The translations under genes and the position numbers were made by a program. Source: Candidatus Saccharimonadota bacterium (GTDB lineage: Bacteria > Patescibacteriota > Saccharimonadia > Saccharimonadales > Saccharimonadaceae). Taken from it: a stretch of DNA of 42,326 bases. The stretch is from positions 1 through 42,326 of the forward strand of contig JAFOJO010000013.1 of the NCBI GenBank assembly GCA_017421325.1. The letters are read 5' to 3'. Below, one piece after another: positions 11,430 to 27,848 of this stretch; position 1 is the stretch's first letter; every line of letters begins with the position of its first letter. Below the pieces are notes generated by a model that saw nothing but the letters and a program-made list of their open reading frames with translations, was not told where the DNA came from and did no database searches.

Positions 11430-12190
11430 TCAATAGTTTTTTCTACCAACTCTTTCGCCAATTGATACGAAAACCCTTGCCGGCAAAGATAAGCCACTAG
11501 CTTTTCGTCATCATATTTTGCCCGTTTTTTGGCAATAATCTTCAGAATCTCTTCTTCATCATTACGTCCATCCAACACTTCTTCTACAATATCCTGCGAA
11601 ATCCCCTTTTTCATTAGTTCCATCTTCAACCTTTTACGTGAAACCCCTTTTTTTACAAATCGATTCTCTACGTAATACTGCGCAAATTTGACATCATCCA
11701 CATAGCCTCGCTCCACCAATCTCTCCACAATCAAATCTTTAAAATCGTACTTTACCCTGTTTTTCGCACGTTCTGCCCTCTTTTCCAACCGTCTAGCATC
11801 CAATTCTTCGCCTTTCGCCACTAGTTCCGCAATCTCTCGATCTCTTTCCCAATCTTTCTTTTTCTCTTTGGCTTCACTTTGTATTTCTCTTCGCCTTAAA
11901 TAATCCTTCAGCTCGCGCACGCTCCTAGGCCGCATTAGTACCCATTCCAAAGCTCTCTGGTAAGCCTTACCAAATTCACTCGCCTTCTTATAATCCGCCA
12001 ATTCTTCTTCACTAATTACTCGCCCAATCTTCACCCCCATGTCTACCACCTGCGCCACATCTAGCGAAAAAGTATATCTACCATTCACATAGATATTTAC
12101 CCGATTTTCATTCCTCACCGCTTGTTTAATATCAGTGATTTTCAACTCCCCACCAGAAGCCCCCGCGCTTATCGGCGCTTCTCCTTGCAT
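11426..12190 (-). CDS. recX: Regulatory protein RecX
   Basis: About 254 residues. RecX-like helical repeats are visible: ALEWVLMRPRSVRELKDYLRRR, VERLVERGYVDDVKFAQYYVENR and AYLCRQGFSYQLAKELVE. RecX modulates RecA filaments. The start is uncertain. The ATG at 12188-12190 overlaps the -10 box of a consensus promoter, so a transcript from that promoter would need a later start (for example TTG at about 12145, preceded by GGTGGGGAG). The ATG would serve only messages read from recA. A charged region (about 115-145) separates the repeats. The gene follows recA and nudix, consistent with an SOS-type unit. Confidence 0.8.
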   Translation of the reverse strand: MQGEAPISAGASGGELKITDIKQAVRNENRVNIYVNGRYTFSLDVAQVVDMGVKIGRVISEEELADYKKASEFGKAYQRALEWVLMRPRSVRELKDYLRRREIQSEAKEKKKDWERDREIAELVAKGEELDARRLEKRAERAKNRVKYDFKDLIVERLVERGYVDDVKFAQYYVENRFVKKGVSRKRLKMELMKKGISQDIVEEVLDGRNDEEEILKIIAKKRAKYDDEKLVAYLCRQGFSYQLAKELVEKTID

Positions 12191-12217
12191 TATATCACGC
12201 TTACGCTTTTTTGTCAA
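12189..12217 (-). promoter_or_regulatory. Consensus promoter in front of recX
   Basis: On the minus strand TTGACA (12217-12212), a 17-nt spacer and TATAAT (12194-12189). It gives recX its own promoter in addition to read-through from recA-nudix. Confidence 0.75.
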
Positions 12218-13995: not shown

Positions 13996-14168
13996 AACCC
14001 TCCTTTCTCCGTACCATTGTTTTTTAAACATACGCCACCCCTATTTCCTGCCACTTACTTATCACACCCAGTTGCAGATTTCAACCCCCCACCTTGCATT
14101 TCATTCCGCTCCCGGTTATTTTTCCGAGATGCAGTGAATTATTAAATAAAACCTGCTATAATATCACT

Positions 14169-15299
14169 ATGCGTGTAAACGAAAATATCTTAATCTCAAG
14201 TCTTACTACCATGCGCCTCGGCGGCCCCGCTCGCTATGTTTTAGAAATCGAACGCCCCGAAGATATCCCTGATGCTTTTGGCTTCGCCGCTACCTATAAT
14301 CTCCCTACTTTTGTACTTGGCTACGGCGCCAACACCATCGGCCACGACGAAGGCTTTAACGGCGTAATTATCATCAACCGCATGCGCGGCATCACAGAAT
14401 TGTCACAAGAAAACGATACATGGACGGGTGACGCCAATGGGGGGTCCCCCGACGCGCGCAGGCGCGAGCCGAGCACGGTGGGGGAAACTTTGGCGGCAGG
14501 ACCCGTCCAGCGTATAAAAGTTATGGGTGGCGAATACTGGGACGACGTCGTCGCTTACGCTTGTGAAAGAAATCTTACCGGCATTGAAGCGTTGAGCAAA
14601 ATCCCCGGCCTCGCCGGTGCCGCACCGGTGCAAAACATCGGCGCTTACGGCCAAGAAATCGCCGACACTCTAGAAAGTATCGAAGTCTACGATATTGTCA
14701 GCCACACTTTCAAAACTCTCACTCACGACGATTTAGGCTTTAGCTATAGAAAAAGCATCCTCAACACCACCGAGAAAAATCGTTATTTTGTTATTTCTAT
14801 CACCTTAAAGCTCCAAACCGGCCAAATGCCCCGCCCTTTCTACCGCTCCATCGAAAAATACATCTCCGATCACAACTCTACTAATTTCACCCCCCAAGGC
14901 ATCCGCGCCATCGTCAGCGCCATCCGTGCCGACAAACTCCCCGATCCACTGGAGAAAGCCAGCTCTGGCTCCTTCTTCAAAAACATCTATCTCACCGAAG
15001 CAGAATCCGAAATTGCCGAAGCCAAAGGCTATCCAGTCTATCACGGCAAAGATGGCCACAAAATCAATTCCGGCTGGCTTATCGAAAAAGCTGGCTTTTC
15101 CGATAAACTTCTCCATGGTTTCCGCGTCAACCCCAAAGCTGCACTCGTACTCATCAACGAATCCGCCAAATCTTACCAAGATCTCGCCGCCGCCCGCGAA
15201 GAAATCATAAACAAAGTCTACGATATTTACGGCTACTGGCTCGAACAAGAGCCCGTAGAAATCATCAACCCACCCGTCAAAATCCCAGGAGTCAACTAA
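14169..15299 (+). CDS. murB: UDP-N-acetylmuramate dehydrogenase MurB with in-frame insertion
   Basis: 376 residues from MRVNENIL. FAD-binding signatures GYGANTIGHDEGFNG and IPGLAGAAPVQNIGAYGQE, then YRKSIL and SSGSFFKNI, identify MurB, the second step of UDP-MurNAc synthesis. The start is chosen because TATAAT lies at 14157-14162, exactly 6 nt before the ATG (leaderless). After ITELSQEND an 87-bp GC-rich palindrome (14422-14508) adds about 29 residues before RIKVMGGEYW. Most MurB proteins join these two strands with a short turn. The stop overlaps the folD start by 1 nt. Confidence 0.92.
   Translation: MRVNENILISSLTTMRLGGPARYVLEIERPEDIPDAFGFAATYNLPTFVLGYGANTIGHDEGFNGVIIINRMRGITELSQENDTWTGDANGGSPDARRREPSTVGETLAAGPVQRIKVMGGEYWDDVVAYACERNLTGIEALSKIPGLAGAAPVQNIGAYGQEIADTLESIEVYDIVSHTFKTLTHDDLGFSYRKSILNTTEKNRYFVISITLKLQTGQMPRPFYRSIEKYISDHNSTNFTPQGIRAIVSAIRADKLPDPLEKASSGSFFKNIYLTEAESEIAEAKGYPVYHGKDGHKINSGWLIEKAGFSDKLLHGFRVNPKAALVLINESAKSYQDLAAAREEIINKVYDIYGYWLEQEPVEIINPPVKIPGVN
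14422..14508. repeat. GC-rich palindromic insertion inside murB (87 bp)
   Basis: The ends are GGACGGGT (14422-14429) and ACCCGTCC (14501-14508), a perfect 8-bp inverted repeat, with inner pairs GCCAA/TTGGC, TCCCCC/GGGGGA and GCGCGC/GCGCGA-type stems. The stretch is far more GC-rich than the surrounding gene. Its length is a multiple of 3 and it keeps the murB frame. Its sequence differs from the truB element. Confidence 0.65.
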
Positions 15300-16084
15300 T
15301 GAAATCTTTAAACGGTAGAGATCTCGCTAGTTTTATTAAGGAGCGCCAAGCTCACCAGGTAGCTAGCCTGAGCCATAGGCCAAAGCTCCTCATTATCCGT
15401 GATAGCAATAATCCAGTCATCACCAAGTATGTTAATCTCAAAATCAAATATGGCGAAGATATCGGTGTAGATGTAGAAGACTATCTTGCTAAAAATTCAG
15501 AAAGTATCGCCGTCAAAATTAATGAAGCCAATGAAGACCCCACCGTCAGTGGTATCATCCTTCAGCTCCCTATTTTAGAAAAAGATAAAACCGACGAACT
15601 CTGTAACCTCATCAAACCAGAAAAAGATGTAGATGGACTAGGCGTAAGCGCCAAATATGATTCCGCCACCGCCACCGCCATCCTCTGGCTCCTAGCTGGC
15701 TACGACATTAAATTAGAAAATCAAAAAATCGCCATCATCGGCCGTGGTAAATTAGTTGGTGCCCCACTATACAAGATTTTCCAAGCCTCAAACTACGACG
15801 TCGCCCTCTTTCACCGTGGCAGCGACTTGACAAACCTTAAGCAATTTGATATAATTATCAGTGCCACGGGCGTTCCGGGGTTGATTTCTGGTGATTTCAT
15901 CTCCCCTGGCGCCACTCTTGTAGATGCCGGCACTGCGTCAGAAGACGGAGTAATAAAAGGCGACTTTGCCCCTGAACTCTACGCTAGAAAAGACCTCACC
16001 GCCATCACCCCAACCACCGGCGGTGTCGGCCCTCTCACTATCACCTGCCTTTTCGACCACCTCATCCAAGCCACCAACCCGTAA
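15299..16084 (+). CDS. folD: FolD, methylenetetrahydrofolate dehydrogenase/cyclohydrolase
   Basis: 261 residues, somewhat shorter than the usual 280-290. Motifs: YVNLKIKYGEDIGV (catalytic Lys region), SGIILQLPIL, EKDVDGLGV, the nucleotide loop IGRGKLVGAPL and PTTGGVGPLT. It interconverts 5,10-methylene- and 10-formyl-tetrahydrofolate using NADP+. It overlaps murB by 1 nt and is co-transcribed with it. The TR region of the retroelement follows on the same strand. Confidence 0.92.
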   Translation: MKSLNGRDLASFIKERQAHQVASLSHRPKLLIIRDSNNPVITKYVNLKIKYGEDIGVDVEDYLAKNSESIAVKINEANEDPTVSGIILQLPILEKDKTDELCNLIKPEKDVDGLGVSAKYDSATATAILWLLAGYDIKLENQKIAIIGRGKLVGAPLYKIFQASNYDVALFHRGSDLTNLKQFDIIISATGVPGLISGDFISPGATLVDAGTASEDGVIKGDFAPELYARKDLTAITPTTGGVGPLTITCLFDHLIQATNP

Positions 16085-16392
16085 TCATCCATTATAATAT
16101 AAAATGCGGGGAATGAATGTTAGCAATAATCTTTGCATTATTCTCCATTCAACATTTTATAAACGAGGCTCAGAACTACGCTCACTCAGAGCTCATGCTT
16201 TTGCCAAATCCGCAAGTTGGGAAGCATTGCAAAAAATAATTTAGCAAAGACACCCTTCGCCGTTTACGAGCGACGCAGGTTGTAAGTTAGTTCTATTATC
16301 CCTTCCGGGGTTTTCTCCGGCTGGCCACCGGCTGTATTCTACTTGCGAGTTCGTGTATGACGTTGGTAATATTCTATTGGCTTTGCCCCAGT
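16085..16392 (+). other. Non-coding leader of the DGR template RNA (putative)
   Basis: This 308-bp stretch between folD and the template repeat has no convincing gene. A TATAAT at about 16091-16096 could start the template RNA. Just after it is an imperfect hairpin built on AATAAT/ATTATT and GAATG/CATTC. The last 40 bases translate into a sequence similar to the part of the target protein just before the VR (LLALPQYFLYSG versus LRSFPNNFLYSG), so the template was probably copied from a FISUMP gene. Confidence 0.45.
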
Positions 16393-16608
16393 ATTTCCTC
16401 TACTCCGGCAACGCCAACAATAGTAATATTAACAATCGCGGGTCGAACGGGAACTACTGGTCCTCGTCCGCGAACAATGCCAACAACGCCTATAACCTGA
16501 ACCTCAACAGTTCAAATCTCAACCCAGGTACGAATAACAACAATAAGTTCAACGGCTTTACCGTCCGCTGCGTGGTCGCGCCTTCTTCATAGGGCTTGGT
16601 TCCCTTCG
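16393..16608 (+). repeat. DGR template repeat (TR), 216 bp
   Basis: Matches the VR (19015-19230, opposite strand) over 216 bp without gaps. All 25 differences are at adenines of the TR, which is the mark of DGR mutagenesis. The TR is full of AAC/AAT codons in the target frame: 22 Asn codons, of which 21 are changed in the VR. The last 56 bp (from about 16553) are identical in both copies and run past the target stop codon, as expected for the initiation-of-mutagenic-homing part. The apparent 79-codon frame over it is not a gene. Confidence 0.95.
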
Positions 16609-16644
16609 CTCCTCGTTTATCACTCCCCGCCCAAAAACACAAAC

Positions 16645-17790
16645 TCAAATCTCATATTCCCACCCCACTTCCGCAAAAAGTTTTTCCAACATCACCGCAC
16701 TATCCATATATTTCGTGTGTCCCATATACGAAATCACCGTCCGCTCATCCCTTATCCCCATCATCACCTCCCGACACGCAATCCGAATATTTTTCTTTAA
16801 TCTATCCCCCATTACAATATGATTGTTATACACTACCGCGCCCAAAAACGGCACCCCCTGCGCAGATTTTCTTAGCGACCTTTTCCTCGGATGCAGCGTC
16901 AATTTTTTCGTTGCCAAAAACATTTCTATCGCTTTAATATCTTTCTTTAATTGCGCCACCTGTGTTTCATCTACCACAATGTAAAAATCATCCACATATC
17001 GCCCATAATGTTTATATCCCAAATCATATACAATAAATCTATCTAGCATATCTAAATACACATTAGATAAAAGCTGTGAGGTCAAATTCCCAATCACAAT
17101 CCCTTTGCCTGGCTCTTGTTTAAATAAACTTTTGCTATCCGGAAGCTCCGTCCAACCTTTTAAACTTCCTCGTTTTCTCACTCCGTGAATAGGATCGTCC
17201 ATTATGGTTTGATACCATAAAAATTTCAACAGTTCATATTCTTTAGTATCTCGCCGCCCCACAAACTGTCTATCTAATCCCCACATAGCCCGCTCATACA
17301 AATCCCTCCTTGGTAAACTCATAAAATAGCCCTGAATATCCATTTTTAATACATACACTTCCTTTTTATAATTCTCCGACGCCGCTCGTATATGATAATC
17401 CAGCCGCTGTATCCCCATTAGCGTACCCTTTCCCACCCTACAGCTATACGAATCGTAAATAAATCGTTTGTCCCACCAATCATACACCGTATCAAAAATC
17501 AAATGATGCACCACTCTATCCCGAAATGTTGCTGCAAATATTTCTCGTATCACCGGATTATGAATAATATGTGCCGTGCTCCGGCTTGGCCGGTAAGTCT
17601 TCGCCAATATATCATCTCTTAGCTTAATTAAATTTTCATCCGCATTTAGTTCAAATCTGTGCTCGTCTTTTGTACCACGTTTACCACCTTTGCGCGCTTC
17701 TAGATATGCCACATATAGCGCAAACAACAGCCTATTTTCAAATTTCCTCAACCATTCTTTATCCCCCACCCCAAATTCTATTTTCTTCAC
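16645..17790 (-). CDS. DGR reverse transcriptase
   Basis: 381 residues, GTG start. RT motifs: VLKMDIQGYF (first catalytic Asp at about 151), IGNLTSQLLSN (about 233-243; the SQ form of motif 4 typical of DGR enzymes), and GRYVDDFYIVV (catalytic YVDD at about 265-268). It makes an adenine-mutagenised cDNA of the TR RNA for homing into the VR. The start overlaps the stop of the accessory gene (GTGA), so the two are coupled. Its 3' end converges on the TR, which is on the opposite strand 36 bp away. Confidence 0.95.
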   Translation of the reverse strand: MKKIEFGVGDKEWLRKFENRLLFALYVAYLEARKGGKRGTKDEHRFELNADENLIKLRDDILAKTYRPSRSTAHIIHNPVIREIFAATFRDRVVHHLIFDTVYDWWDKRFIYDSYSCRVGKGTLMGIQRLDYHIRAASENYKKEVYVLKMDIQGYFMSLPRRDLYERAMWGLDRQFVGRRDTKEYELLKFLWYQTIMDDPIHGVRKRGSLKGWTELPDSKSLFKQEPGKGIVIGNLTSQLLSNVYLDMLDRFIVYDLGYKHYGRYVDDFYIVVDETQVAQLKKDIKAIEMFLATKKLTLHPRKRSLRKSAQGVPFLGAVVYNNHIVMGDRLKKNIRIACREVMMGIRDERTVISYMGHTKYMDSAVMLEKLFAEVGWEYEI

Positions 17791-18833
17791 ACCAACCTTC
17801 TTACGATTGTGTTCTTAAGATCTACCAGAGTTTCGCCTACCCTCACCCGTGTTGCCAAATCAAACAATTTGTTCTCATCTACTATCGCCAATATCGCCGC
17901 AATGTCATCCATCTGCACCTGCATCTTTTGTAAAGCTTCAAATCTTTCTATTCTACCATTTCCCATTTTAAAATAAATTTTGTACAGTTCTACTACCGCA
18001 GTTAGTAACCTGTTACCAAATACTTCTCTATACGCTCCATCCATTTTCTTTACTTTGGGTGGCAATATTTGCGCCAAATTTCTGATTAACCCATAAATAT
18101 CCGGAAAATTCTCTTTCGGTGTAATCATTTTCTGCACTTTATCTTTATCACGCTTTTCCCGATTCTGTATTTCCTCCACTTCTTTCGGGCTAAACTTTTT
18201 GTCCATCGTCGCAATAATTAGTCCAAATTCACTCCTTTGCACCACACACCCCACCTTCTGTACGTCTTCTACAAACTTTTCACCCCAATGTATTATCGCA
18301 ATCCCATTTTTAAATCTCTGTTGCATATCCGTATCATCACGAATCACTGGTTTACGCCCCATTCTCGGCCCTATATAATATTTATAAAACAGTACCGAAT
18401 TTCCACCTACCTTATACCACTCATCTTCATCTTCTCCATCCCTCGAAGGGAACAAAATTATCCTTGAATAATTATTTTCTTCCAATTTGCGTGCTACTAT
18501 TTTACCGTCAAAATACTTTTTACGTTTAGCGCGCATTCGTTTAGTTTTATCACCCGCATCTTCCTTCGCTTGCTCTTCCAACAATATCCCTTTCAAAATT
18601 TTTGTGTCAAAATTATTTTGCGTTTCAAAAATTTTGGTCTTACTTGGCCGCATTACCTTATCATACACTTCATCGATCTTTTTAGCTCTTTTCTTTTGTG
18701 GTGCGCTCTTGCCATTTAACCAAGAATTCAAGCTCTTGGCCGATACTTCTATCATCCCAGCTAGCGTCGCCTGCGACCAACCCGTAGCCGTCAAAATCTC
18801 CTCCAATTTTTTCACTTCTTCCATAAACTTCAT
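17787..18833 (-). CDS. DGR accessory protein: HTH plus Avd-like four-helix fusion
   Basis: 348 residues in three parts. Residues 1-55 look like an XRE-type helix-turn-helix (WSQATLAGMIEVSAKSLNSW). The middle (about 110-225, with GNSVLFYKYYI and GIAIIHWGEKF) is unassigned but could be the MutS-like (MSL) type of DGR accessory domain. The last 110 residues are four amphipathic helices (beginning IYGLIRNLAQILPP) and resemble Avd, the pentameric partner of DGR reverse transcriptases. It precedes the RT in one operon. Two copies of AACGTTATAAC lie just upstream and could be its own operator. Confidence 0.7.
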   Translation of the reverse strand: MKFMEEVKKLEEILTATGWSQATLAGMIEVSAKSLNSWLNGKSAPQKKRAKKIDEVYDKVMRPSKTKIFETQNNFDTKILKGILLEEQAKEDAGDKTKRMRAKRKKYFDGKIVARKLEENNYSRIILFPSRDGEDEDEWYKVGGNSVLFYKYYIGPRMGRKPVIRDDTDMQQRFKNGIAIIHWGEKFVEDVQKVGCVVQRSEFGLIIATMDKKFSPKEVEEIQNREKRDKDKVQKMITPKENFPDIYGLIRNLAQILPPKVKKMDGAYREVFGNRLLTAVVELYKIYFKMGNGRIERFEALQKMQVQMDDIAAILAIVDENKLFDLATRVRVGETLVDLKNTIVRRLV

Positions 18834-18843
18834 TGTATCATAA

Positions 18844-18878
18844 AACGTTATAACCTTTTAGGGAACGTTATAACGTTA
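18844..18878. promoter_or_regulatory. Repeated palindromic operator upstream of the DGR operon
   Basis: AACGTTATAAC occurs twice, 20 bp apart (about two helical turns), each with the 8-bp palindrome GTTATAAC. They lie directly upstream of the accessory/RT operon and near a TATGAT-like -10 box next to the start codon. The HTH domain of the first gene is the obvious candidate binder. Confidence 0.55.
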
Positions 18879-18898
18879 CATCTCGTACATTTTACCAC

Positions 18899-18945
18899 CT
18901 GAAACTTCCAGACCGGCGCCCACTGCGCCGGCCCGAAAGTTTCAG
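18899..18945. repeat. Hairpin 2 downstream of the VR
   Basis: CTGAAACTT (18899-18907) pairs with AAGTTTCAG (18937-18945), and CCGGCGC (18913-18919) with GCGCCGG (18925-18931). GC-rich inside an AT-rich region. Confidence 0.7.
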
Positions 18946-18958
18946 TGCATTCGCCACA

Positions 18959-18999
18959 CTTCTCTTGGGCGCCGACTATCGCCGGCTCGCCAAGAGAAG
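18959..18999. repeat. Hairpin 1 downstream of the VR (homing-associated or terminator)
   Basis: CTTCTCTTGG (18959-18968) pairs with CCAAGAGAAG (18990-18999). An inner GCCGGC/GTCGGC stem (minus-strand sense) has a GATA loop. It starts 15 bp beyond the VR end. Hairpins or cruciforms just after the VR help target recognition in characterised DGRs such as that of Bordetella phage BPP-1. There is no T-run, so simple termination is less likely. Confidence 0.65.
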
Positions 19000-19014
19000 G
19001 TGGCCTCAGAGGCT

Positions 19015-19230
19015 CGAAGGGAACCAAGCCCTATGAAGAAGGCGCGACCACGCAGCGGACGGTAAAGCCGAGGAACTTATCGCTGCTATCCGTACCTGGG
19101 TAGAGAAGTGAACTGTCGAGGAACAGGCTATAGGCGCGGTCGGCATTGTACGCGGACGAGGACCAGTAGTACCCGTACGACCCGCGAGTGCTAATACTAC
19201 TATCGTAGGCGTAGCCGGAGTAGAGGAAAT
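19015..19230 (-). repeat. DGR variable repeat (VR), 216 bp
   Basis: Forms the 3' end of the 19031-21388 gene and continues past its stop codon. It differs from the TR only where the TR has A (A to T, G or C, 25 sites). The changes convert Asn codons to Tyr, Asp, Ser, Thr, Arg, Phe and Leu. Confidence 0.95.
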
Positions 19231-21388
19231 TATTCGGGAAGCTCCTAAGTGCCCTTGATGCGTCCACGCCCTCCGGATTCCCAGTGTAATAAAAATAATC
19301 ATTTGCAAAGTTAGCAGGATCAGCTCCAATATTAGCACGAGACAACTTCCAAAAATCACTATTATTAACACTAGCTTTGCGCCCACCCATTGGCAATCTC
19401 CATCCACTCGGACAAATAGAAGTTCCCGCCGTATCAGAAGCAGAATAGGAAGTGTAGTGCATAGTATTAGCTATAGCTGCCGCCCAAGAATAATAATTTC
19501 CATACGAATAAACATTTTGATTCGTATTGGCCATATTGGCAACTGTAACATTATTGTTCTTACTGGTAACAGAATTCGTATTGTCGTTTCTATATCTTGG
19601 CATCCTATAACCCAAGTTCCCCGGATCGTTGCTGGAATATGTAATATTGTGCGTATTATTATTACCATTCGTACTATACAAACTATTGGCTGTGGTATTA
19701 TTGGCAAAATTCGCTACCTCAGGATTCGCCAACCCTACAAACACATTATTCGCACCAGTACCCAGCCCTTGAGTATTGCTCGCCGCAAACGACACATCCT
19801 GCACCGTACCATTACTATCTAAATAATAATTAGATAGTCTCAAGTTTTCTATCATCCAATAGTTTCCATCTTTTAGTTTAGCCACCGCATATACTTGGTT
19901 ATCACGCTCATCTCTTAAAGCAGTTATATATTCATTTGGCTTGCTAGCCAAAGTATCTCCTGCTGTTTCGGTAAGTTGTGTAGCTAGAAGACCCTCTGTT
20001 TGGAAAGTCAGTTCGTTACCATCTTTATCTTTTGCCACCGGCACCCACACTGCATAAAGTTTCATACCACTAGCACTCAAATCTCCAGTAGTAATATTCT
20101 GCATCGGACCATAGATAGTAGGCTTATTATTTGTAGCATTTATCGCAGTCGCCGCATTTTTATCTTCACTCCAACCTGCAAAACCGTAGTCACTTTGGCC
20201 ATCATTATTAGTGTCATACTTAAAATTAGATGGGAATAAATTTACCGCCATATTGGAAGTAATAGCATTGGTATTATCACTATAATTAGCTGTCTGGTCA
20301 CTCATCTTAGTAGCGCTATTCGCACCATTGTCATCATAGCAGATTCTACGAGACTGGCAATCCGTCCACATTGCATATAGCGTAATAGTATTATCATTAG
20401 ATGTTTGATCTATACCGAAATTATCGCCTGGCTTATAAATACTGCCGTTACAATCAGTGGTGGTAGTATTTGCACTACACCACCCGGCAAAATAGTACCC
20501 GTCAGACCTAGTAGGCGTATTTGTACGTAACGCAACCGTCGTCTCATATGTTGTTAAATCTACCTGATTCACAGGCATACTAGACGGATTAGCTTGTCCA
20601 CTACTATCCACATAGTTTATAGTATACGATGCGCCATTGCCTACCGCTTTAATTACAAAGGTATCATTTTGATAGGTGCCCATTGGGATAGTGGTATCTA
20701 CTCTAGCACCTATCTTCATTGTGTATTCTTGTGGTATTAAGTCGCCAGTTTCTGTGTCTGTAAGGTTAGCTGTACTAGTTTTAGCAAAGTTAGTTTCAGC
20801 AGTAGATACGGGGAAATACTTTTCATCTACGCCTTCCCCCCTATTAGACATTTGGGTGTTGCCGTTTAGATAAGTACTAGGATTAAAGCCCCAAGTATTA
20901 CGGACTGTATTTAATGTTACATTAGAATCTTCACTACTAGTTGGATCTATGTAATCACTCTTTAGTATGCCACTACTTAGTGTACTAGGTAATGGGCTAA
21001 TATAACATTTTTCTTCTGTTACTGGACAATTGGTAGCATCTGTATTAATCAGTTTGGTAGTATTATCGCCACTTTGGGCAGCAATACTTAAGGTATATCC
21101 CGTATAGCTGTCCGTAGAAGCAGTAATGGTTAGCTCATTAGACTCTGCAAAGGTACCGTCTTTTGAGACTGGCTTCAAGTTGAAAGAAAGGAGATTTACT
21201 GTTTCGCCACTAATACTAAGTTTCACTGAATTAGTGGCTGGAGTGGCTGTACCTACTGTAGCATTAGCATTTTCCTCTGGCTTTGGCGGAAAAATCACGC
21301 TACCACACAAAAACAGCAACAAACCACAAGCTACCCACCCCGCCAGTCGCAGAGTCCGCTTAAGTTTTAATTGTTGCTGTAATTTCAC
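19031..21388 (-). CDS. DGR-diversified FISUMP surface protein
   Basis: 785 residues, GTG start with AAGGAG upstream. An N-terminal membrane segment (about 14-30) is followed by Thr/Ser/Asn-rich beta sequence. Two InlB-type repeats follow, ending ITLYAMW and MKLYAVW. The C-terminal FISUMP domain carries NYWMIENLRL, CPSGWRLPMGG, YYWSSS and GFTVRCVVAPSS. FISUMP is a C-type-lectin-like fold used as a DGR target in CPR bacteria. The last 66 or so residues are the VR, with variable positions in the Tyr/Ser/Asp-rich loop. It is most probably a cell-surface binding protein whose ligand specificity is rewritten. Confidence 0.9.
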   Translation of the reverse strand: MKLQQQLKLKRTLRLAGWVACGLLLFLCGSVIFPPKPEENANATVGTATPATNSVKLSISGETVNLLSFNLKPVSKDGTFAESNELTITASTDSYTGYTLSIAAQSGDNTTKLINTDATNCPVTEEKCYISPLPSTLSSGILKSDYIDPTSSEDSNVTLNTVRNTWGFNPSTYLNGNTQMSNRGEGVDEKYFPVSTAETNFAKTSTANLTDTETGDLIPQEYTMKIGARVDTTIPMGTYQNDTFVIKAVGNGASYTINYVDSSGQANPSSMPVNQVDLTTYETTVALRTNTPTRSDGYYFAGWCSANTTTTDCNGSIYKPGDNFGIDQTSNDNTITLYAMWTDCQSRRICYDDNGANSATKMSDQTANYSDNTNAITSNMAVNLFPSNFKYDTNNDGQSDYGFAGWSEDKNAATAINATNNKPTIYGPMQNITTGDLSASGMKLYAVWVPVAKDKDGNELTFQTEGLLATQLTETAGDTLASKPNEYITALRDERDNQVYAVAKLKDGNYWMIENLRLSNYYLDSNGTVQDVSFAASNTQGLGTGANNVFVGLANPEVANFANNTTANSLYSTNGNNNTHNITYSSNDPGNLGYRMPRYRNDNTNSVTSKNNNVTVANMANTNQNVYSYGNYYSWAAAIANTMHYTSYSASDTAGTSICPSGWRLPMGGRKASVNNSDFWKLSRANIGADPANFANDYFYYTGNPEGVDASRALRSFPNNFLYSGYAYDSSISTRGSYGYYWSSSAYNADRAYSLFLDSSLLYPGTDSSDKFLGFTVRCVVAPSS

Positions 21389-21548: not shown

Positions 21549-22889
21549 TTATTTCATTAACTTTTTGCGGCTAGCAATGTAGTAACCAAGCGTGGTTACC
21601 ATCGAACCAGCACCTAGGGCGCCAGTCACTACTTCACCCGCACCAGTATTTACGATAGTGGTTGGAGTTTCCGTAGGAACATCTGGCGTTGGTGTTGGAG
21701 TTGGCTCTGGAGTAGGTTCCGGAGTTGGGCCCGTACAAGTCTTTGCTACGTATACCTGTGCCGAATCTTGCACCGCAAAGCCATTCGCCGAAGCCTTCGC
21801 CCAGTTAATTAGGCGGTTAGTTTTGTTACAAACTAAATCTTCATCTACCACTTCCGCTATAAAGCGTAAGTACGCATCGCCTTTTACGGCATAACTACCT
21901 ACGTTTACTGCTGCCACCGTTGGGTCTTCATAAGCCACCCCATTCGGGTTAGATTGATTAAGCAATTTAGCAGAATCAGCCACGTACTTCAAGTTGTTTG
22001 GCAAAGAGTCGCGAATCATTACATCTTTCACCATTGAATCATTCAAGTTTTTGTAATGAATTTGGAATTCAACTTTGTCACCAACTTTAGCGTCAACCGA
22101 TTCTTTCCATTCCTTGTCACCAGCCATCCGTACAGTCTTCTCGATCGAGCTAGATTCGAATACTGGTTTTACTTCAATCGTATAGTAAGAAGCATAACCA
22201 TAACAGCCAGGCACCTTGCCATCTTCGTTAGCCTTGTAGCTTGCTTTCACGCCAGCTGTAGTAGCCAACGAATCGCTTAAAGTTTTACCGCCATTAGCAC
22301 CGTAGTTATTATTTTCTACTAGCGAGCTACCTTCGATGTAGTCAAGGTAGAAAGCTCTACCGTCGGCGCTCTTAAAGTCGACATAGTCCCAATAAGAACT
22401 AATTGCTGTACCCGGCGCATCGATAAAACCATTTACCCGTTGAGTAGCGCCCACTACTTCTGGAATCTGGAAAGAGACTTTCACATTTTCCGCCGTAGCA
22501 GCTTCACCCTTTGGGTTGTTGTTGTGCACATAAAGCCGCACAATGTAAGTTTTACCTTCTTCTACGGTGATGGTATTACCATCCCACACGTTATTCTTAC
22601 CATTATTGCCAGTGGCCTTATCACGTGCCCCCACGAAATTTCTTTCGTCAGAAAGTGGCATTATTACGCCAGCTTCTTTATTTTTCTCTGATAAATTTTC
22701 GTTAGAATCAACGATCGAGTTGAAAACGATATTATCGCCAAGCTCGCCGTTGTTAATTTGGGCGATAGTGTAAGTCTTACGACCTTCACCAGCGTTACCC
22801 CAAGCGCTAACGAACGCCGGGACAATAGCCGCAGTAGCAACTACCGCTGCTGCCGACACCCCAAGTATAGTTTTATAAACTTTACTCAT
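21549..22889 (-). CDS. Cell-surface protein with DUF11-like repeat and C-terminal anchor
   Basis: 446 residues. A signal peptide (MSKVYKTILGVSAAAVVATA) is followed by a long beta-rich ectodomain. Part of it resembles DUF11/isopeptide-type repeats (GDKVEFQIHYKNLNDSMVKD and DSLPNNLKYV). A Pro/Thr repeat (PTPEPTPEPTPTPTPDVP) then leads to IVNTGAGEVV, a hydrophobic segment and RKKLMK. The end looks like a cell-wall sorting signal with NTG in place of LPXTG. AAAGGA lies upstream. Probably an abundant stalked surface protein; neighbours on both sides are also surface genes. Confidence 0.75.
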   Translation of the reverse strand: MSKVYKTILGVSAAAVVATAAIVPAFVSAWGNAGEGRKTYTIAQINNGELGDNIVFNSIVDSNENLSEKNKEAGVIMPLSDERNFVGARDKATGNNGKNNVWDGNTITVEEGKTYIVRLYVHNNNPKGEAATAENVKVSFQIPEVVGATQRVNGFIDAPGTAISSYWDYVDFKSADGRAFYLDYIEGSSLVENNNYGANGGKTLSDSLATTAGVKASYKANEDGKVPGCYGYASYYTIEVKPVFESSSIEKTVRMAGDKEWKESVDAKVGDKVEFQIHYKNLNDSMVKDVMIRDSLPNNLKYVADSAKLLNQSNPNGVAYEDPTVAAVNVGSYAVKGDAYLRFIAEVVDEDLVCNKTNRLINWAKASANGFAVQDSAQVYVAKTCTGPTPEPTPEPTPTPTPDVPTETPTTIVNTGAGEVVTGALGAGSMVTTLGYYIASRKKLMK

Positions 22890-23169: not shown

Positions 23170-24981
23170 TCAATCAGGAACAAACTCTCCATCCCCATTG
23201 GAGCTTGTTACTGGTTTTTGGCTGTTTACCGGGCCTCTGTCGGTTACCGGATCAGGTTCATAGTCCATTTTGTTTTCATGGTCTACGATCTGTCCAGCCT
23301 GTTCCTCAGCTTTATGCTCTGGAACTACCGCCGGAGTATCCGGCTTTACGTCTGCAGGATCCTGCTTTTCAGTTCTCGGATCTTGCGCTTGATACTCACC
23401 ACTACCGTCGGACGGCTTGTTGTCACCGCCGCCCTTTTGGGCATTTCCGTTGTTAACGGGATCGTCAGCAGGATCCTTTTGTTTAACCGTCGACGTCGGA
23501 TCTGTCGGATCCGGACCCGGATCCGGAGTCGTAGTCGGACTCGGCGGATTGTCAGGGTCCGTCGGCGTCGGCGGGTTATCAGGACTTGTCGGAGTTGGCG
23601 GATTGTCAGGGTCGGGATCCGTCGGCGTTGGTACATTAACCACTTCCGGCGGATCTTCTTTGTCAAAGAACTCCGGTCGCTTGTCGTGCACATTAAAGCC
23701 GATAACAAACAGACCCCTAGCGTCCTTCTTGCCAGCTTCACTCTTAGGAATATAAGCTAGCACGAAAGCGTCTTTCTTGTACTGATACTCAGCCATTATG
23801 CCCGCGCGGTCATTATTTTTAGCCGCACTGTTTAAACACCAGTTTTCAATAGTTTGATGCGACTGCACGCCCTGTTCTACCAATCTTTCCAGGAAAGTGC
23901 ACAAAGTTGCAGCGTAGCATCTGTACTCCTCAGTGACATAAATCACCTTAGTATCGTTGCCACGATATTCGCACCAAACAAAGACTCCCTTACTGTTCTT
24001 CTGAACCATTTCGTTCATCCAGCCATTGAGGTCTCCGATAGCCTGATCGCCAATCTTCTTACTGCGGAGAGCGTTAGCCACTGCCACACCATACACGGGA
24101 TTGCGGAGAATTTCCGTCTCCAGCTTTTTGAACATCTTTGTAGTATCCTTACTCTCAAACCCAAAGGTTAAAGCATCAGACATACCAGTTTTAGATGTTC
24201 TTTCCTTATCCTTTGGAGATAAAGAAGAGTCTAGCAGAGTTTCCTGAATATCCTTGTACTTAGTCAAGGTTAACTTTTCCAAGTCTTCCGGAGTTAGCTT
24301 CTGCACCGACAAATTTTGTTGGTCGTATGCGTTTTCGACCGCTTCGACACTCGGGCCTCCGCAGCCAGCCAAGCTAAGCACAATCAGCACTACAACCAAC
24401 ACAAGCGCAGTAATCTTTACCGCCATCTGGACTTTTTCAAAGTCTTTATTACCCTCAGCGGCACGATAGTTAAAAGCATCTATCACCATAAAAGCGATTA
24501 GCCCCACCATCATCAAAAAAGGCAAATTGCAAAAGATCCTTGAAAACGCATTATTGCCCCACGGAGCCGACATCATAGTCGCCAAACTATGGCCTATAAC
24601 GGTCAAAACTCCAGCAACTATGCCGAAACATACACCTTGTCCAAGCATAGCTCCTATTCTATACCAGGCAAAAGCCAGATACACATAACCGAACAAAACT
24701 AATGCGAAAAAGATCCACGCCAACCACATAGTGTTCACGTTAATTTTCACCAGGTTATAGGCAATCAGGCCAGTAGACACACCAGCTATTACGCCAGCAA
24801 TCCACCCTTCTGCGCCAGCCTTTGATAAAAACGATATAGACTTATGCGGCGTTCCATTGCTATCAATCTTGGAGGTTCTTATCTCGCCTCCATTTGCCAA
24901 ATGATGGCTTGCCATTAATAAGCTACCAACTAATACGCCAAAAAAGATCGCTAAGGGGCCATTAAATAATTGATTCAACAT
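23170..24981 (-). CDS. Polytopic membrane protein with proline-rich extracellular tail
   Basis: 603 residues. Five to six hydrophobic segments occupy about residues 1-215, the last one ending LIVLSLAGCGG, which resembles an internal lipobox. A soluble domain (about 220-425) contains several cysteines (VWCEYRG, RCYAATLC, ENWCLN). A long Pro/Thr/Asp tail follows, with DNPPTPT-type repeats. The start has AAGGAGGT upstream. No family recognised. The build suggests a membrane anchor carrying an extracellular domain on a stalk. A consensus promoter lies at 25150-25178. Confidence 0.65.
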   Translation of the reverse strand: MLNQLFNGPLAIFFGVLVGSLLMASHHLANGGEIRTSKIDSNGTPHKSISFLSKAGAEGWIAGVIAGVSTGLIAYNLVKINVNTMWLAWIFFALVLFGYVYLAFAWYRIGAMLGQGVCFGIVAGVLTVIGHSLATMMSAPWGNNAFSRIFCNLPFLMMVGLIAFMVIDAFNYRAAEGNKDFEKVQMAVKITALVLVVVLIVLSLAGCGGPSVEAVENAYDQQNLSVQKLTPEDLEKLTLTKYKDIQETLLDSSLSPKDKERTSKTGMSDALTFGFESKDTTKMFKKLETEILRNPVYGVAVANALRSKKIGDQAIGDLNGWMNEMVQKNSKGVFVWCEYRGNDTKVIYVTEEYRCYAATLCTFLERLVEQGVQSHQTIENWCLNSAAKNNDRAGIMAEYQYKKDAFVLAYIPKSEAGKKDARGLFVIGFNVHDKRPEFFDKEDPPEVVNVPTPTDPDPDNPPTPTSPDNPPTPTDPDNPPSPTTTPDPGPDPTDPTSTVKQKDPADDPVNNGNAQKGGGDNKPSDGSGEYQAQDPRTEKQDPADVKPDTPAVVPEHKAEEQAGQIVDHENKMDYEPDPVTDRGPVNSQKPVTSSNGDGEFVPD

Positions 24982-25149
24982 GGTAATTATACCTCCTTAA
25001 AAAATTTTTCTGGAGGCACCCGCCCCCAGAACGAATTGGGGATGGGGACATATAGCTATTCAGATTTCATTTGAAATCTGAGATGATTCGGTTGTTAATG
25101 GTCTTCATCGCTTTGACTCTGAAAACACACCAAAACTCAGACTGCTCTC

Positions 25150-25178
25150 ATTGTATCACACTTTCGCTTTTTTGTCAA
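25150..25178 (-). promoter_or_regulatory. Promoter of the 23170-24981 gene
   Basis: Minus strand: TTGACA (25178-25173), 17-nt spacer, TACAAT (25155-25150). The leader of about 160 nt (24982-25143) carries a CAGATTTCA/TGAAATCTG hairpin near 25060-25081 and a GC-rich stem near the gene. Confidence 0.7.
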
Positions 25179-25840: not shown

Positions 25841-25922
25841 CAAAATCATCCTTTCTAATATATGTGTACTTTAGATCAAAATAGCGTTCTCAAACAACCA
25901 AACTGTTAAATTACATGCCTTC

Positions 25923-25951
25923 ATTATAGCACACATGGTTAATTTTGTCAA
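25923..25951 (-). promoter_or_regulatory. Promoter of the 25316-25840 gene
   Basis: Minus strand: TTGACA (25951-25946), 17-nt spacer, TATAAT (25928-25923). Confidence 0.75.
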
Positions 25952-26051: not shown

Positions 26052-26129
26052 GGTGGGATTAGCTCAGATGGTTAGAGCGTCTGATTGTGGTCCAGAAGGT
26101 CGTCGGTTCGATCCCGATATCCCACCCCA
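26052..26129 (+). tRNA. tRNA-His (GTG)
   Basis: Cloverleaf with anticodon GTG in the loop TTGTGGT. G-1 (26052) faces C73, the identity pair of tRNA-His. Acceptor GTGGGAT pairs with ATCCCAC, the T-loop is TTCGATC, and CCA is encoded. The last pair of the anticodon stem is A31-C39, a mismatch. Confidence 0.95.
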
Positions 26130-26147
26130 GGTCTATGCCGGCAAATT

Positions 26148-26222
26148 GCGAGCATAGTACAGCGGCTAGTATACAAGTTTTCCAAACTTGGGATGAGAGT
26201 TCGACCCTCTCTGCTCGCACCA
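26148..26222 (+). tRNA. tRNA-Gly (TCC)
   Basis: Acceptor GCGAGCA/TGCTCGC, anticodon arm CAAGT-TTTCCAA-ACTTG with anticodon TCC, T-arm GAGAG-TTCGACC-CTCTC, encoded CCA. Its 3' end is the attachment site of the element that follows. The tRNA stays whole because the element ends in the same 19 bp. Confidence 0.96.
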
Positions 26223-27848
26223 TTGTTCAATTTCAGCCTGATTTAGGCTGTTTTTTATCTGTTGGTGGGTAGTTCGAACCTTTTCAGCTTCCTCTTTAGT
26301 CTGGGCTATAAAATCAGCTATTGGTTTTACCCAATAATGTGGTTTTATTCTAACTGTCTTATCTATTAAAACAGCGTCCGAACCTATAGCATCAATTATT
26401 AACCGCTTAACTCCAATATCACCTAACTTATAATTTTCATTTGCTTTGAGTAAATGTGTCAGTGTCTTTTCCACTATATCATACCAATCATTAATACGTT
26501 CATTAGTCTCAACTTGCTTTTCTTGTATCTTTTCTAATTTATCCCTTATGGACTGTGCTTTAGTTTTATAATCTTCAGCAGTAATTATTCCGTCAGCAAC
26601 TAAGTCCAATAGGCCGTCTAATCTCTTCTGTAACATTTTCTGACTTTCGTGCTGTAAATCCTGTGTACTAAACTGCTCAGCCTTTTCCTTTTTCGCCAAC
26701 TCATCTAATGCCTTAAGTCCCCACTGATATAGCTCGTCAGATATGGTATATTTGCCCAACAAAGAATCTAGCTGCTCAGCCAGTTCATTCTCACTTACAC
26801 TCCTCTGCTTACACTTTATGGTTCTGTTTTTATGAGTACAATGATAATATACATAGGTTTTACCGCTTCTCTTGGTCTTTTTCTCAGCAGTAATAGCACA
26901 ACCACACTGGCCACACGTCAAGACGCCTTTTAATGGGAAATTATAGATATGAGGAAGACGTGGACCTCCCTTTTCACCTAATCGTTTCTGAATGCCATTA
27001 TATTCTTCTGGAGTAATCATTGGTTCATAAGAAGCTTTACAATAAAAATCCGAATTACCTGGGTGTTCTGGGTCTGGTATCATACCTGCATAACGCGGGT
27101 TGCCCAGCATCTTATAAAAAATTGTGTTAGTTATAGGTTTCCCGCCAGTTCTTGCGTGCTTAGGCGTAAGAAAACAGCAATCTTCATTAAGCCACTGCAC
27201 TATCTCCGTAACAGAGTAATTGCCAGAAAGATATTTCAACATAGCCTCACGAATAACATCAAATCTTAATGGGTCTGGCTCAGCGTGGGTATTTCTACCA
27301 TTGCCAGTGTCGGAAACAGAAATATATCCCATTGGGACTGGGCCAGTGAGTTGGCCACGTTCACGTTTTTTCGCATTACCACGTTTCACATCTTTACTAA
27401 GTTTTGCCGAAAAATATTGCGCCTGAGACATTATCATCTGAAGCATCATAATCCCCTCTGGAGTCTTCTCGAAGGTGAAGTTACAGAATTTCAAGTCACT
27501 AATAACGCCATTTTGAATGTCCCAGATAATACGAGAGGCATCGGGCATATTCCGACTCAACCTGTCTGGATGCCAGGCGATAATGCCATTGTACTTGCCA
27601 CTCTCCAGCATTTCTATCATTTTATTGAACACAGGTCTGCCAGGCTTAGCAGCGGACATACTTTCACCAATTTCCCCGAACTCGTCCTTTAAAAAAGTTA
27701 TATTAAGGTCTGGGAATTGGCGTTTAATTTCTTCTAGTTGTGCCTCTTTAGATAAAACTTGTCTGTCTTTCTCTTCCGTAGACTTTCTAACATAGGCCAA
27801 ATATTTTAGCTTATTAGTTTTATCATTAGGATATTCGTTGGTATTCAT
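26166..27848 (-). CDS. Large serine recombinase (integrase)
   Basis: 560 residues. The resolvase catalytic domain starts LAYVRKSTEEKD (nucleophile Ser about residue 23), with HPDRLSRN near 93-100. It is followed by a recombinase domain (FYKMLGNPRYAGMI), a zinc ribbon with cysteines near 312, 315, 337 and 346, and a coiled-coil stretch (about 430-470). It should catalyse integration and excision at the flanking att sites. AAAGGAG lies upstream of the ATG. The last 12 codons lie in the antisense of the chromosomal tRNA-Gly, so the C-terminus depends on the integration state. Confidence 0.93.
   Translation of the reverse strand: MNTNEYPNDKTNKLKYLAYVRKSTEEKDRQVLSKEAQLEEIKRQFPDLNITFLKDEFGEIGESMSAAKPGRPVFNKMIEMLESGKYNGIIAWHPDRLSRNMPDASRIIWDIQNGVISDLKFCNFTFEKTPEGIMMLQMIMSQAQYFSAKLSKDVKRGNAKKRERGQLTGPVPMGYISVSDTGNGRNTHAEPDPLRFDVIREAMLKYLSGNYSVTEIVQWLNEDCCFLTPKHARTGGKPITNTIFYKMLGNPRYAGMIPDPEHPGNSDFYCKASYEPMITPEEYNGIQKRLGEKGGPRLPHIYNFPLKGVLTCGQCGCAITAEKKTKRSGKTYVYYHCTHKNRTIKCKQRSVSENELAEQLDSLLGKYTISDELYQWGLKALDELAKKEKAEQFSTQDLQHESQKMLQKRLDGLLDLVADGIITAEDYKTKAQSIRDKLEKIQEKQVETNERINDWYDIVEKTLTHLLKANENYKLGDIGVKRLIIDAIGSDAVLIDKTVRIKPHYWVKPIADFIAQTKEEAEKVRTTHQQIKNSLNQAEIEQWCEQRGSNSHPKFGKLVY
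26205..26223 (+). repeat. Attachment site, left copy
   Basis: CCCTCTCTGCTCGCACCAT, the 3' end of tRNA-Gly plus one base. Repeated exactly at 39061-39079. Confidence 0.85.

What the first reader, a model, noticed from the sequence alone, without database searches (positions are those of the whole stretch)
16393..21388. Complete diversity-generating retroelement acting on a FISUMP surface protein
TR (16393-16608) and VR (19015-19230) align over 216 bp without gaps and differ at 25 sites, all of them adenines in the TR. 21 of 22 Asn codons in the TR are changed. A DGR-type RT (IGNLTSQ, YVDD), an Avd-like accessory protein and a C-type-lectin-like target are all present, so the system looks active. 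DGRs are known to be common in CPR bacteria; what is of interest is this locus's own architecture.
Basis: partly seen in the sequence, partly recalled or inferred. Interest (0 to 1): 0.85.

Follow-up and report, generated by a model that had tools for sequence, protein, structure and literature searches.

The report
Self-mutating surface gene, backward RNA template
A tiny parasitic gut bacterium carries a genetic machine that keeps rewriting one of its surface proteins, and in it and nearly all its close relatives the template RNA is read in the opposite direction to the copying enzyme's gene and begins with a folded, conserved region not described in the papers I could search.

Summary
In detail: TR 16393-16608 (+) and VR 19015-19230 (-) align over 216 bp with 25 differences, all at TR adenines (P about 9e-17). 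With a DGR-type RT, an Avd-fold accessory protein and a FISUMP target, this is a complete DGR in a Candidatus Nanosyncoccus-like Saccharibacterium. That is the rule in this genus: TR is opposite to RT in 71 of 72 in-genus loci with a TR/VR pair, against 1 of 68 viral loci with related RTs. Upstream of TR lies a covarying RNA leader with a TATAAT-like box. It has a helix P2 that differs in sequence from locus to locus, and a long-range helix P1 pairing the leader with the TR 3' end (z = 10.4 in 32 loci, 6.4 in 14 further loci, none at control positions). A covariance model built without the window found held-out loci almost only directly upstream of TR. BPP-1, the best-studied DGR, has its structured RNA 3' of TR. 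I read this as a known kind of element with a new, autonomous template-RNA architecture. That the leader binds RT/accessory and helps prime cDNA is inferred; activity was not testable.

The parts
16393..16608 (+). template repeat (TR); the copy whose adenines are the mutated positions, so the template RNA is the + strand
   Evidence: 216 bp ungapped match to VR, 25/25 differences at TR A
19015..19230 (-). variable repeat (VR), C-terminal codons of the target gene plus stop and some nt beyond
16645..17790 (-). DGR reverse transcriptase (IGNLTSQ, YVDD), 381 aa, convergent with TR
   Evidence: PF00078 43 bits over cut-off; PDB 8ub7 BPP-1 DGR RT E 5.5e-21
17787..18833 (-). accessory protein, 348 aa: HTH_3 (res 11-58), middle alpha/beta domain weakly like MutS domain I (about 98-215), Avd-fold four-helix bundle (240-348)
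19031..21388 (-). target protein, 785 aa: N-terminal hydrophobic segment, Listeria-Bacteroides repeat-like part, C-terminal FISUMP domain holding the VR
   Evidence: TIGR02145 56.5 bits over cut-off; Flg_new/List_Bact_rpt below cut-off
16093..16098 (+). TATAAT, candidate -10 box of the TR RNA, 79 nt before P2
   Evidence: sequence; boxes cluster 60-115 nt before P2 across 30 loci
16160..16308 (+). structured leader domain (P2-P3-P4) of the TR RNA, 5' of TR
   Evidence: found by model R1 built without the window, 20 bits; 36 bits with R2, which includes it; covariation
16159..16168 (+). helix P1 5' strand ATAAACGAGG
   Evidence: pairs with 16611-16620; z 10.4 over 32 loci, z 6.4 over 14 further loci; in the unconstrained minimum-energy fold
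16611..16620 (+). helix P1 3' strand CCTCGTTTAT, directly after the TR/VR homology
16172..16178 (+). helix P2 left strand AGAACTA
16288..16294 (+). helix P2 right strand TAGTTCT, preceded by the nearly invariant AAG
16180..16192 (+). P3 hairpin GCTC-actca-GAGC
   Evidence: minimum-energy fold; P3 in the family
16106..16112 (+). outer pairing P1a GCGGGGA at the presumed RNA 5' end, complementary to 16624-16630
   Evidence: anchored permutation test over 59 loci, 0/20000; window itself p = 0.04
16624..16630 (+). P1a 3' strand TCCCCGC between TR and rt stop
18959..18999 (-). hairpin/cruciform-forming inverted repeat 3' of VR (CTTCTCTTGG..CCAAGAGAAG with inner GCCGGC-GATA-GTCGGC)
   Evidence: VR-downstream hairpins stronger than shuffles over the clade, p about 2e-9

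Best explanation
This is a complete, probably functional chromosomal DGR that diversifies the C-terminal lectin-like FISUMP domain of a (by its N-terminal hydrophobic segment) membrane-anchored surface protein of a Nanosyncoccus-like episymbiont. Its template is an autonomous noncoding RNA transcribed toward the rt gene: own promoter, a 5' structured leader (P2-P3-P4), TR, and an IMH-like, pyrimidine-rich 3' end. The sequence just 5' of P2 pairs with the TR 3' end (P1), which brings the leader domain to where cDNA synthesis must start. Inferred steps: RT and the HTH/MutS-like/Avd accessory bind this RNA; cDNA starts at the P1-closed TR 3' end, perhaps primed by a leader nucleotide near the nearly invariant AAG before P2; adenines are miscopied; the cDNA replaces VR, guided by the identical 56-bp 3' end and the hairpin behind VR. 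Shown: DGR parts, A-specific signature, opposite TR strand, conserved P1/P2 structure. Not shown: transcription, binding, priming, activity.
For: TR/VR signature. RT and Avd fold. FISUMP target. TR opposite to RT in 71 of 74 loci of this RT group, 71 of 72 in the genus, usually 5-130 nt past the rt end; TR on the RT strand in 67 of 68 viral loci with related RTs. Model R1, seeded without the window: 18 of 19 held-out hits in 1.3 Mb lie directly upstream of TR (or, in L119, where TR is expected), window included. Covariation 0.686 against 0.256 shuffled and at most 0.17 when slid; RNAalifold finds P2 on its own, 7/7 pairs with compensatory changes. P1: z 10.4, repeated in 14 other loci, z 6.4, nothing at neighbouring positions. 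Promoter boxes at a fixed distance from P2. Unconstrained fold of the window RNA contains P1 and P2, z -2.64. Same module, co-directional with RT, in two other families (L068, L072) and in L058.
Against: No transcript, binding or activity data. No strain-level VR variation could be examined. P2 was defined partly by searching for good stems in context, and A3/A4 were fitted to the model, so the pair counts lean towards the structure; the held-out positions and the P1 swap tests do not share that bias. The window's own model score is modest (20 bits with R1). R2 has no E <= 0.01 hit outside the genus among 295 genomes of the order. No clear terminator lies right after the window's TR, so the RNA 3' end is unknown.
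Confidence: 0.82

Rival explanations
1. Standard DGR with a BPP-1-like 3' spacer: the functional RNA domain lies 3' of TR, in the antisense of the rt 3' end; the 5' leader is secondary.
For: In BPP-1 the structured spacer that recruits RT-Avd is 3' of TR (PMC12875486, PMC8867640).
Against: Synonymous sites at the rt 3' end show no distinct excess of conservation. The gap to the rt stop is often under 60 nt and in several loci holds a terminator-like hairpin. The conserved structure is 5'.
Confidence: 0.08
2. The leader structure acts in transcription control (attenuation or termination between converging TR and rt transcripts), not in RT/accessory recognition.
For: TR and rt converge, and several loci carry bidirectional terminator-like hairpins between them.
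Against: P1 ties the leader to the TR 3' end across more than 300 nt, and the module also occurs co-directional with RT (L058, L068, L072), where no convergent conflict exists.
Confidence: 0.12
3. The DGR is a decayed or dormant copy.
For: No activity data; the assembly gives a single VR state.
Against: RT, accessory and target are open; the 56-bp constant end is identical; 25 of 25 changes are A-specific and none is in wobble position.
Confidence: 0.1
4. TR is copied by read-through from the upstream murB-folD genes (14094-16084, +) and the TATAAT at 16093 is chance.
For: folD ends at 16084 on the same strand.
Against: A -10-like box 60-115 nt before P2 in nearly all of 30 loci, and P1a pairing begins right after such boxes.
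Confidence: 0.15

Closest known systems
Bordetella phage BPP-1 DGR (brt, avd, mtd, TR, VR)
   Same: A-specific TR-to-VR transfer, DGR RT, Avd fold, C-terminal VR in the target, hairpin behind VR (PMC3240598)
   Different: BPP-1: all parts on one strand, TR upstream of brt, structured spacer 3' of TR (144 nt between TR and brt). Here: TR opposite to RT, structured domain 5' of TR, accessory with two further domains
'Inverted' DGRs of Shewanella, Vibrio and Photobacterium (Schillinger et al. 2012, PMC3521204) and the G5 cassette of PMC6642488
   Same: TR and RT on opposite strands
   Different: There RT alone is inverted relative to TR, VR and target, in three rare cases; here TR is inverted relative to RT, VR and target, and TR-opposite-RT is the rule for a genus (71/72). 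No RNA structure was reported there in the passages read
MSL (MutS-like, PF01624) accessory proteins of DGRs
   Same: A DGR accessory with a domain weakly like MutS domain I; MSL is named as a known accessory in PMC10053308
   Different: Here in one protein with an Avd-fold domain and, in a few loci, an HTH; PF01624 itself not detected
Retrons
   Same: In retrons (own knowledge), complementary ends a1/a2 close the ncRNA around the reverse-transcribed part; P1 closes the TR RNA in a similar way
   Different: The RT falls well below the retron family cut-off; TR/VR pair and target gene are present; no msDNA evidence

Membership tests
Diversity-generating retroelement (DGR) | TR/VR pair with substitutions confined to TR adenines | tested here: met
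   25/25 at A over 216 bp
Diversity-generating retroelement (DGR) | DGR-type reverse transcriptase nearby | tested here: met
Diversity-generating retroelement (DGR) | accessory protein of a known type (Avd, HRDC, MSL) | tested here: met
   Avd fold, Z 14.1 to 4dwl/8ub7 at 8% identity; no sequence-level match
Diversity-generating retroelement (DGR) | VR at the C-terminus of a C-type-lectin/FISUMP-type target | tested here: met
   TIGR02145 over cut-off; the lectin fold itself not modelled
Diversity-generating retroelement (DGR) | IMH-like constant 3' end and hairpin 3' of VR | tested here: met
   56 bp identical; inverted repeat 18959-18999
Diversity-generating retroelement (DGR) | mutagenic retrohoming in the cell | not testable with these tools
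   needs reads or cultures
BPP-1-type template RNA | structured RNA domain located 3' of TR, between TR and rt | tested here: not met
   conserved structure is 5' of TR; no distinct synonymous constraint at the rt 3' end; 36 nt between TR end and rt stop
Schillinger group 4 inverted DGR | RT on one strand, TR, VR and target on the other | tested here: not met
   VR and target are on the RT strand here; that layout does occur in 13 relatives
MSL (MutS-like) accessory | MutS domain I (PF01624) | tested here: inconclusive
   no PF01624 match; fold similarity to Taq MutS domain I only Z 5.2, 84 residues, 3.6 A
Retron | retron-type RT with msr/msd ncRNA | tested here: not met
   NF038233 53 bits against cut-off 235; TR/VR/target present

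The most novel reading that the evidence does not exclude
There is a second topological class of DGR template RNA: an autonomous ncRNA whose RT/accessory-binding domain is a 5' leader that pairs with the TR 3' end and primes cDNA from there, a permuted counterpart of the BPP-1 spacer RNA and reminiscent of retron a1/a2 closure. It predates the inversion, since P2-like motifs and P1 are also seen in canonical relatives (z 4.5), and it let the template flip freely relative to the RT gene.
Probability: 0.45. Interest if true: 0.78.

Novelty: new variant of a known kind. Interest (0 to 1): 0.62.

Why it matters
DGRs are widespread hypermutators, but in the papers I could read the template-RNA mechanism rests on one phage system whose structured RNA is 3' of TR. 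A genus-wide arrangement with the conserved RNA domain 5' of TR and a covarying helix to the TR 3' end gives a concrete, testable model of template recognition and start-site choice outside BPP-1. It also suggests that the template is an expression unit separable from, and opposed to, the RT gene, which bears on regulation and on building compact DGR tools. For the biology, it gives Saccharibacteria a way to vary a surface lectin, plausibly for holding on to hosts or evading phages (inference).

Tried and rejected
Antisense of the rt 3' end as a conserved RNA: no distinct excess of synonymous conservation. Complementarity of the whole upstream against the whole downstream region: only a weak excess, so the tests were anchored. 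Pairing of the post-P2 leader with the TR, which dominates the window's minimum-energy fold: not conserved, p 0.13-0.40, rejected. MAFFT of all leaders: too divergent to show the structure. Rfam: only tRNAs, and nothing in 16050-16700 even at E <= 1. Sequence search for Avd, MutS or HRDC in the accessory: none. R2 beyond the genus: nothing at E <= 0.01 in 295 genomes of the order; in canonical viral relatives two weak hits on the strand opposite to TR. R2 hits L161 and L162 lie in sequence without TR or RT and were judged chance. Single-protein RT scan of viral contigs: no relatives. Papers that probably describe DGR cassette variants (NAR gkx1150, Nat Microbiol 2017.45) are not held, so a prior report of this arrangement cannot be excluded. 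The careful RT tree did not finish; only the quick tree was read.
Full report
Observation. TR 16393-16608 lies on the + strand and VR 19015-19230 on the - strand. Read that way they match over 216 bp without gaps, with 25 differences, every one at a TR adenine. Chance of this is about 9e-17 (59 of 216 TR bases are A). The replacements are G 11, T 10, C 4, all in codon positions 1 or 2, and 21 of 22 TR Asn codons are changed. The 3' 56 bp are identical. The repeat is unique in the 861 kb, 98% complete assembly, as is the RT.

Proteins. The RT (16645-17790, -) matches RVT_1 over its cut-off and, in the PDB, the BPP-1 DGR RT 8ub7. The 348-aa accessory (17787-18833, -) has an HTH_3 domain, a middle alpha/beta domain and a C-terminal four-helix bundle. 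The bundle has the fold of BPP-1 Avd (4dwl, 8ub7: Z 14.1, rmsd 1.8-2.0 over about 104 residues, 8% identity) and of the S23 family. The middle domain, modelled alone (pLDDT 87), is weakly like MutS domain I (Z 5.2), in line with the MSL accessory named in PMC10053308; I count this as a lead. Most relatives lack the HTH. The target (19031-21388, -) has a FISUMP domain over its cut-off, with VR at its C-terminal end; the N-terminal sequence has one hydrophobic stretch. Behind VR lies an inverted repeat (18959-18999), as in BPP-1 targets (PMC3240598); such hairpins are common in the clade.

Where it is. RT searches place the window in one genus in which 53 further genomes carry this RT or a more distant DGR RT. 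The nearest named relative is Candidatus Nanosyncoccus alces (74% RT identity), and others are ruminant-gut Saccharibacteria. The nearest RTs elsewhere in genome contigs are in Bacteroidota (38-47%). The quick tree puts the close RTs of the genus together with two from other families (L068, L072) (long-branch rows such as L078 and L086 are unsure).

Orientation. Because the mutated bases are adenines on the + strand, the template RNA must be the + strand, opposite to RT and target. In 74 RT loci (at least 40% identity) with a detectable TR/VR pair, TR is opposite to RT in 71, nearly always 5-130 nt past the rt end; VR lies upstream on the RT strand in most, and in 13 downstream on the TR strand. 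The three exceptions are L058 in the genus and L068, L072 in other families. Among 68 viral loci with related RTs, TR is on the RT strand in 67 and upstream of RT in 66. Inverted cassettes are known (PMC3521204, three cases; PMC6642488, G5), but there RT alone is reversed and the arrangement is rare.

The RNA. Leaders upstream of TR hold a TATAAT-like box, then a helix P2 of about 7 bp with a different sequence in each locus, followed by CNC and preceded on its right strand by AAG(T/C). RNAalifold finds P2 unaided with compensatory changes in 7 of 7 pairs. Model R1, built from 15 loci without the window, hit 19 held-out places in 1.3 Mb; 18 lie directly upstream of TR on its strand, or in L119 where TR is expected, and the window's own at 16160-16308 is among them. 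The 32-row alignment has 85% paired cells (61% in shuffles) and covariation 0.686 (0.256 in shuffles; at most 0.17 when slid), with the caution that it was fitted to the model. Whole-genome scans of 95 genus genomes put nearly all hits at DGR loci.

P1. The 16 nt before P2 are complementary to the TR 3' end. Native pairs score 19.31 against 14.22 for swapped loci (z 10.4, no permutation of 20000 as high); neighbouring segments and the TR body show nothing. Fourteen loci not used there repeat it (z 6.4). In the window P1 is 16159-16168 with 16611-16620, ten perfect pairs, and it appears with P2 in the unconstrained minimum-energy fold. A second outer pairing (16106-16112 with 16624-16630) starts right after the -10 box; over 59 loci this kind of pairing beats all 20000 permutations. 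Boxes cluster 60-115 nt before P2.

Older than the flip. L068, L072 and L058, where TR is co-directional with RT, have recognisable P2 and, in L068 and L072, covarying P1 (CTAAGAG/CTCTTAG, CAAGAG/CTCTTG) upstream of TR (read by eye). In canonical relatives a P2-like motif occurs upstream of TR in 22 of 63 (controls 13, 8 and 5), and within those P1 is significant (z 4.5, p 1.5e-4). Bacteroidales L149 and L150 have a similar structured leader, with a terminator right behind TR (read by eye). So the 5' domain probably came first and the flip later. L157 in G022 is a leader with a 10-bp P1 and a terminator but no TR body, probably a relic.

Mechanism. In BPP-1 the spacer 3' of TR folds, binds RT-Avd and primes cDNA from an internal adenine (PMC12875486). 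Here the conserved domain is 5', and P1 brings it to the TR 3' end. I infer that it does the spacer's work from the other side. The binding and priming steps are not shown.

Limits. No reads, no transcripts. Two likely relevant papers are not in the library. The RNA 3' end in the window is unknown.

Noticed in passing
L157:5830-6130 (G022:C2): A solo copy of the leader RNA with 10-bp P1 (AAAGAAAATC/GATTTTCTTT) and a terminator hairpin but no TR body and no RT nearby; looks like a relic or a TR-less RNA.
   Followed up: partly
L149:4909-5450, L150, L153, and viral loci L166, L167, L176, L179, L229, L236, L243: Canonical (co-directional) DGRs of Bacteroidales and viruses show a P2-like stem and P1-like pairing just upstream of TR, so the 5' RNA domain may be a general DGR feature of this RT group.
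   Followed up: partly
G012, G024, G052, G060: These genomes of the genus carry, besides this RT type, a distant DGR RT (about 26-29% identity) with TR upstream on the RT strand (L086, L087, L088, L091): two DGR lineages in one genome.
   Followed up: no
window 26053-27848: tRNA-His and tRNA-Gly (+) next to a large serine recombinase gene (26166-27848, -) whose 3' end overlaps tRNA-Gly; possible integration site of a mobile element.
   Followed up: no
window 12181-12217, 14090-14126, 25142-25178, 25915-25951: Four copies of a 37-nt motif that reads on the other strand as TTGACAAAAAAGCGTAAGCGTGATATAATGCAAGGAG, i.e. a near-consensus -35/-10 pair: a repeated promoter sequence.
   Followed up: no
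window 21549-22889 and 23170-24981: Next to the target: a DUF11/isopeptide-type surface protein and a membrane protein with a Pro/Asp-rich repeat linker (27-bp repeats at 23534-23627); possibly a surface-structure gene cluster.
   Followed up: no
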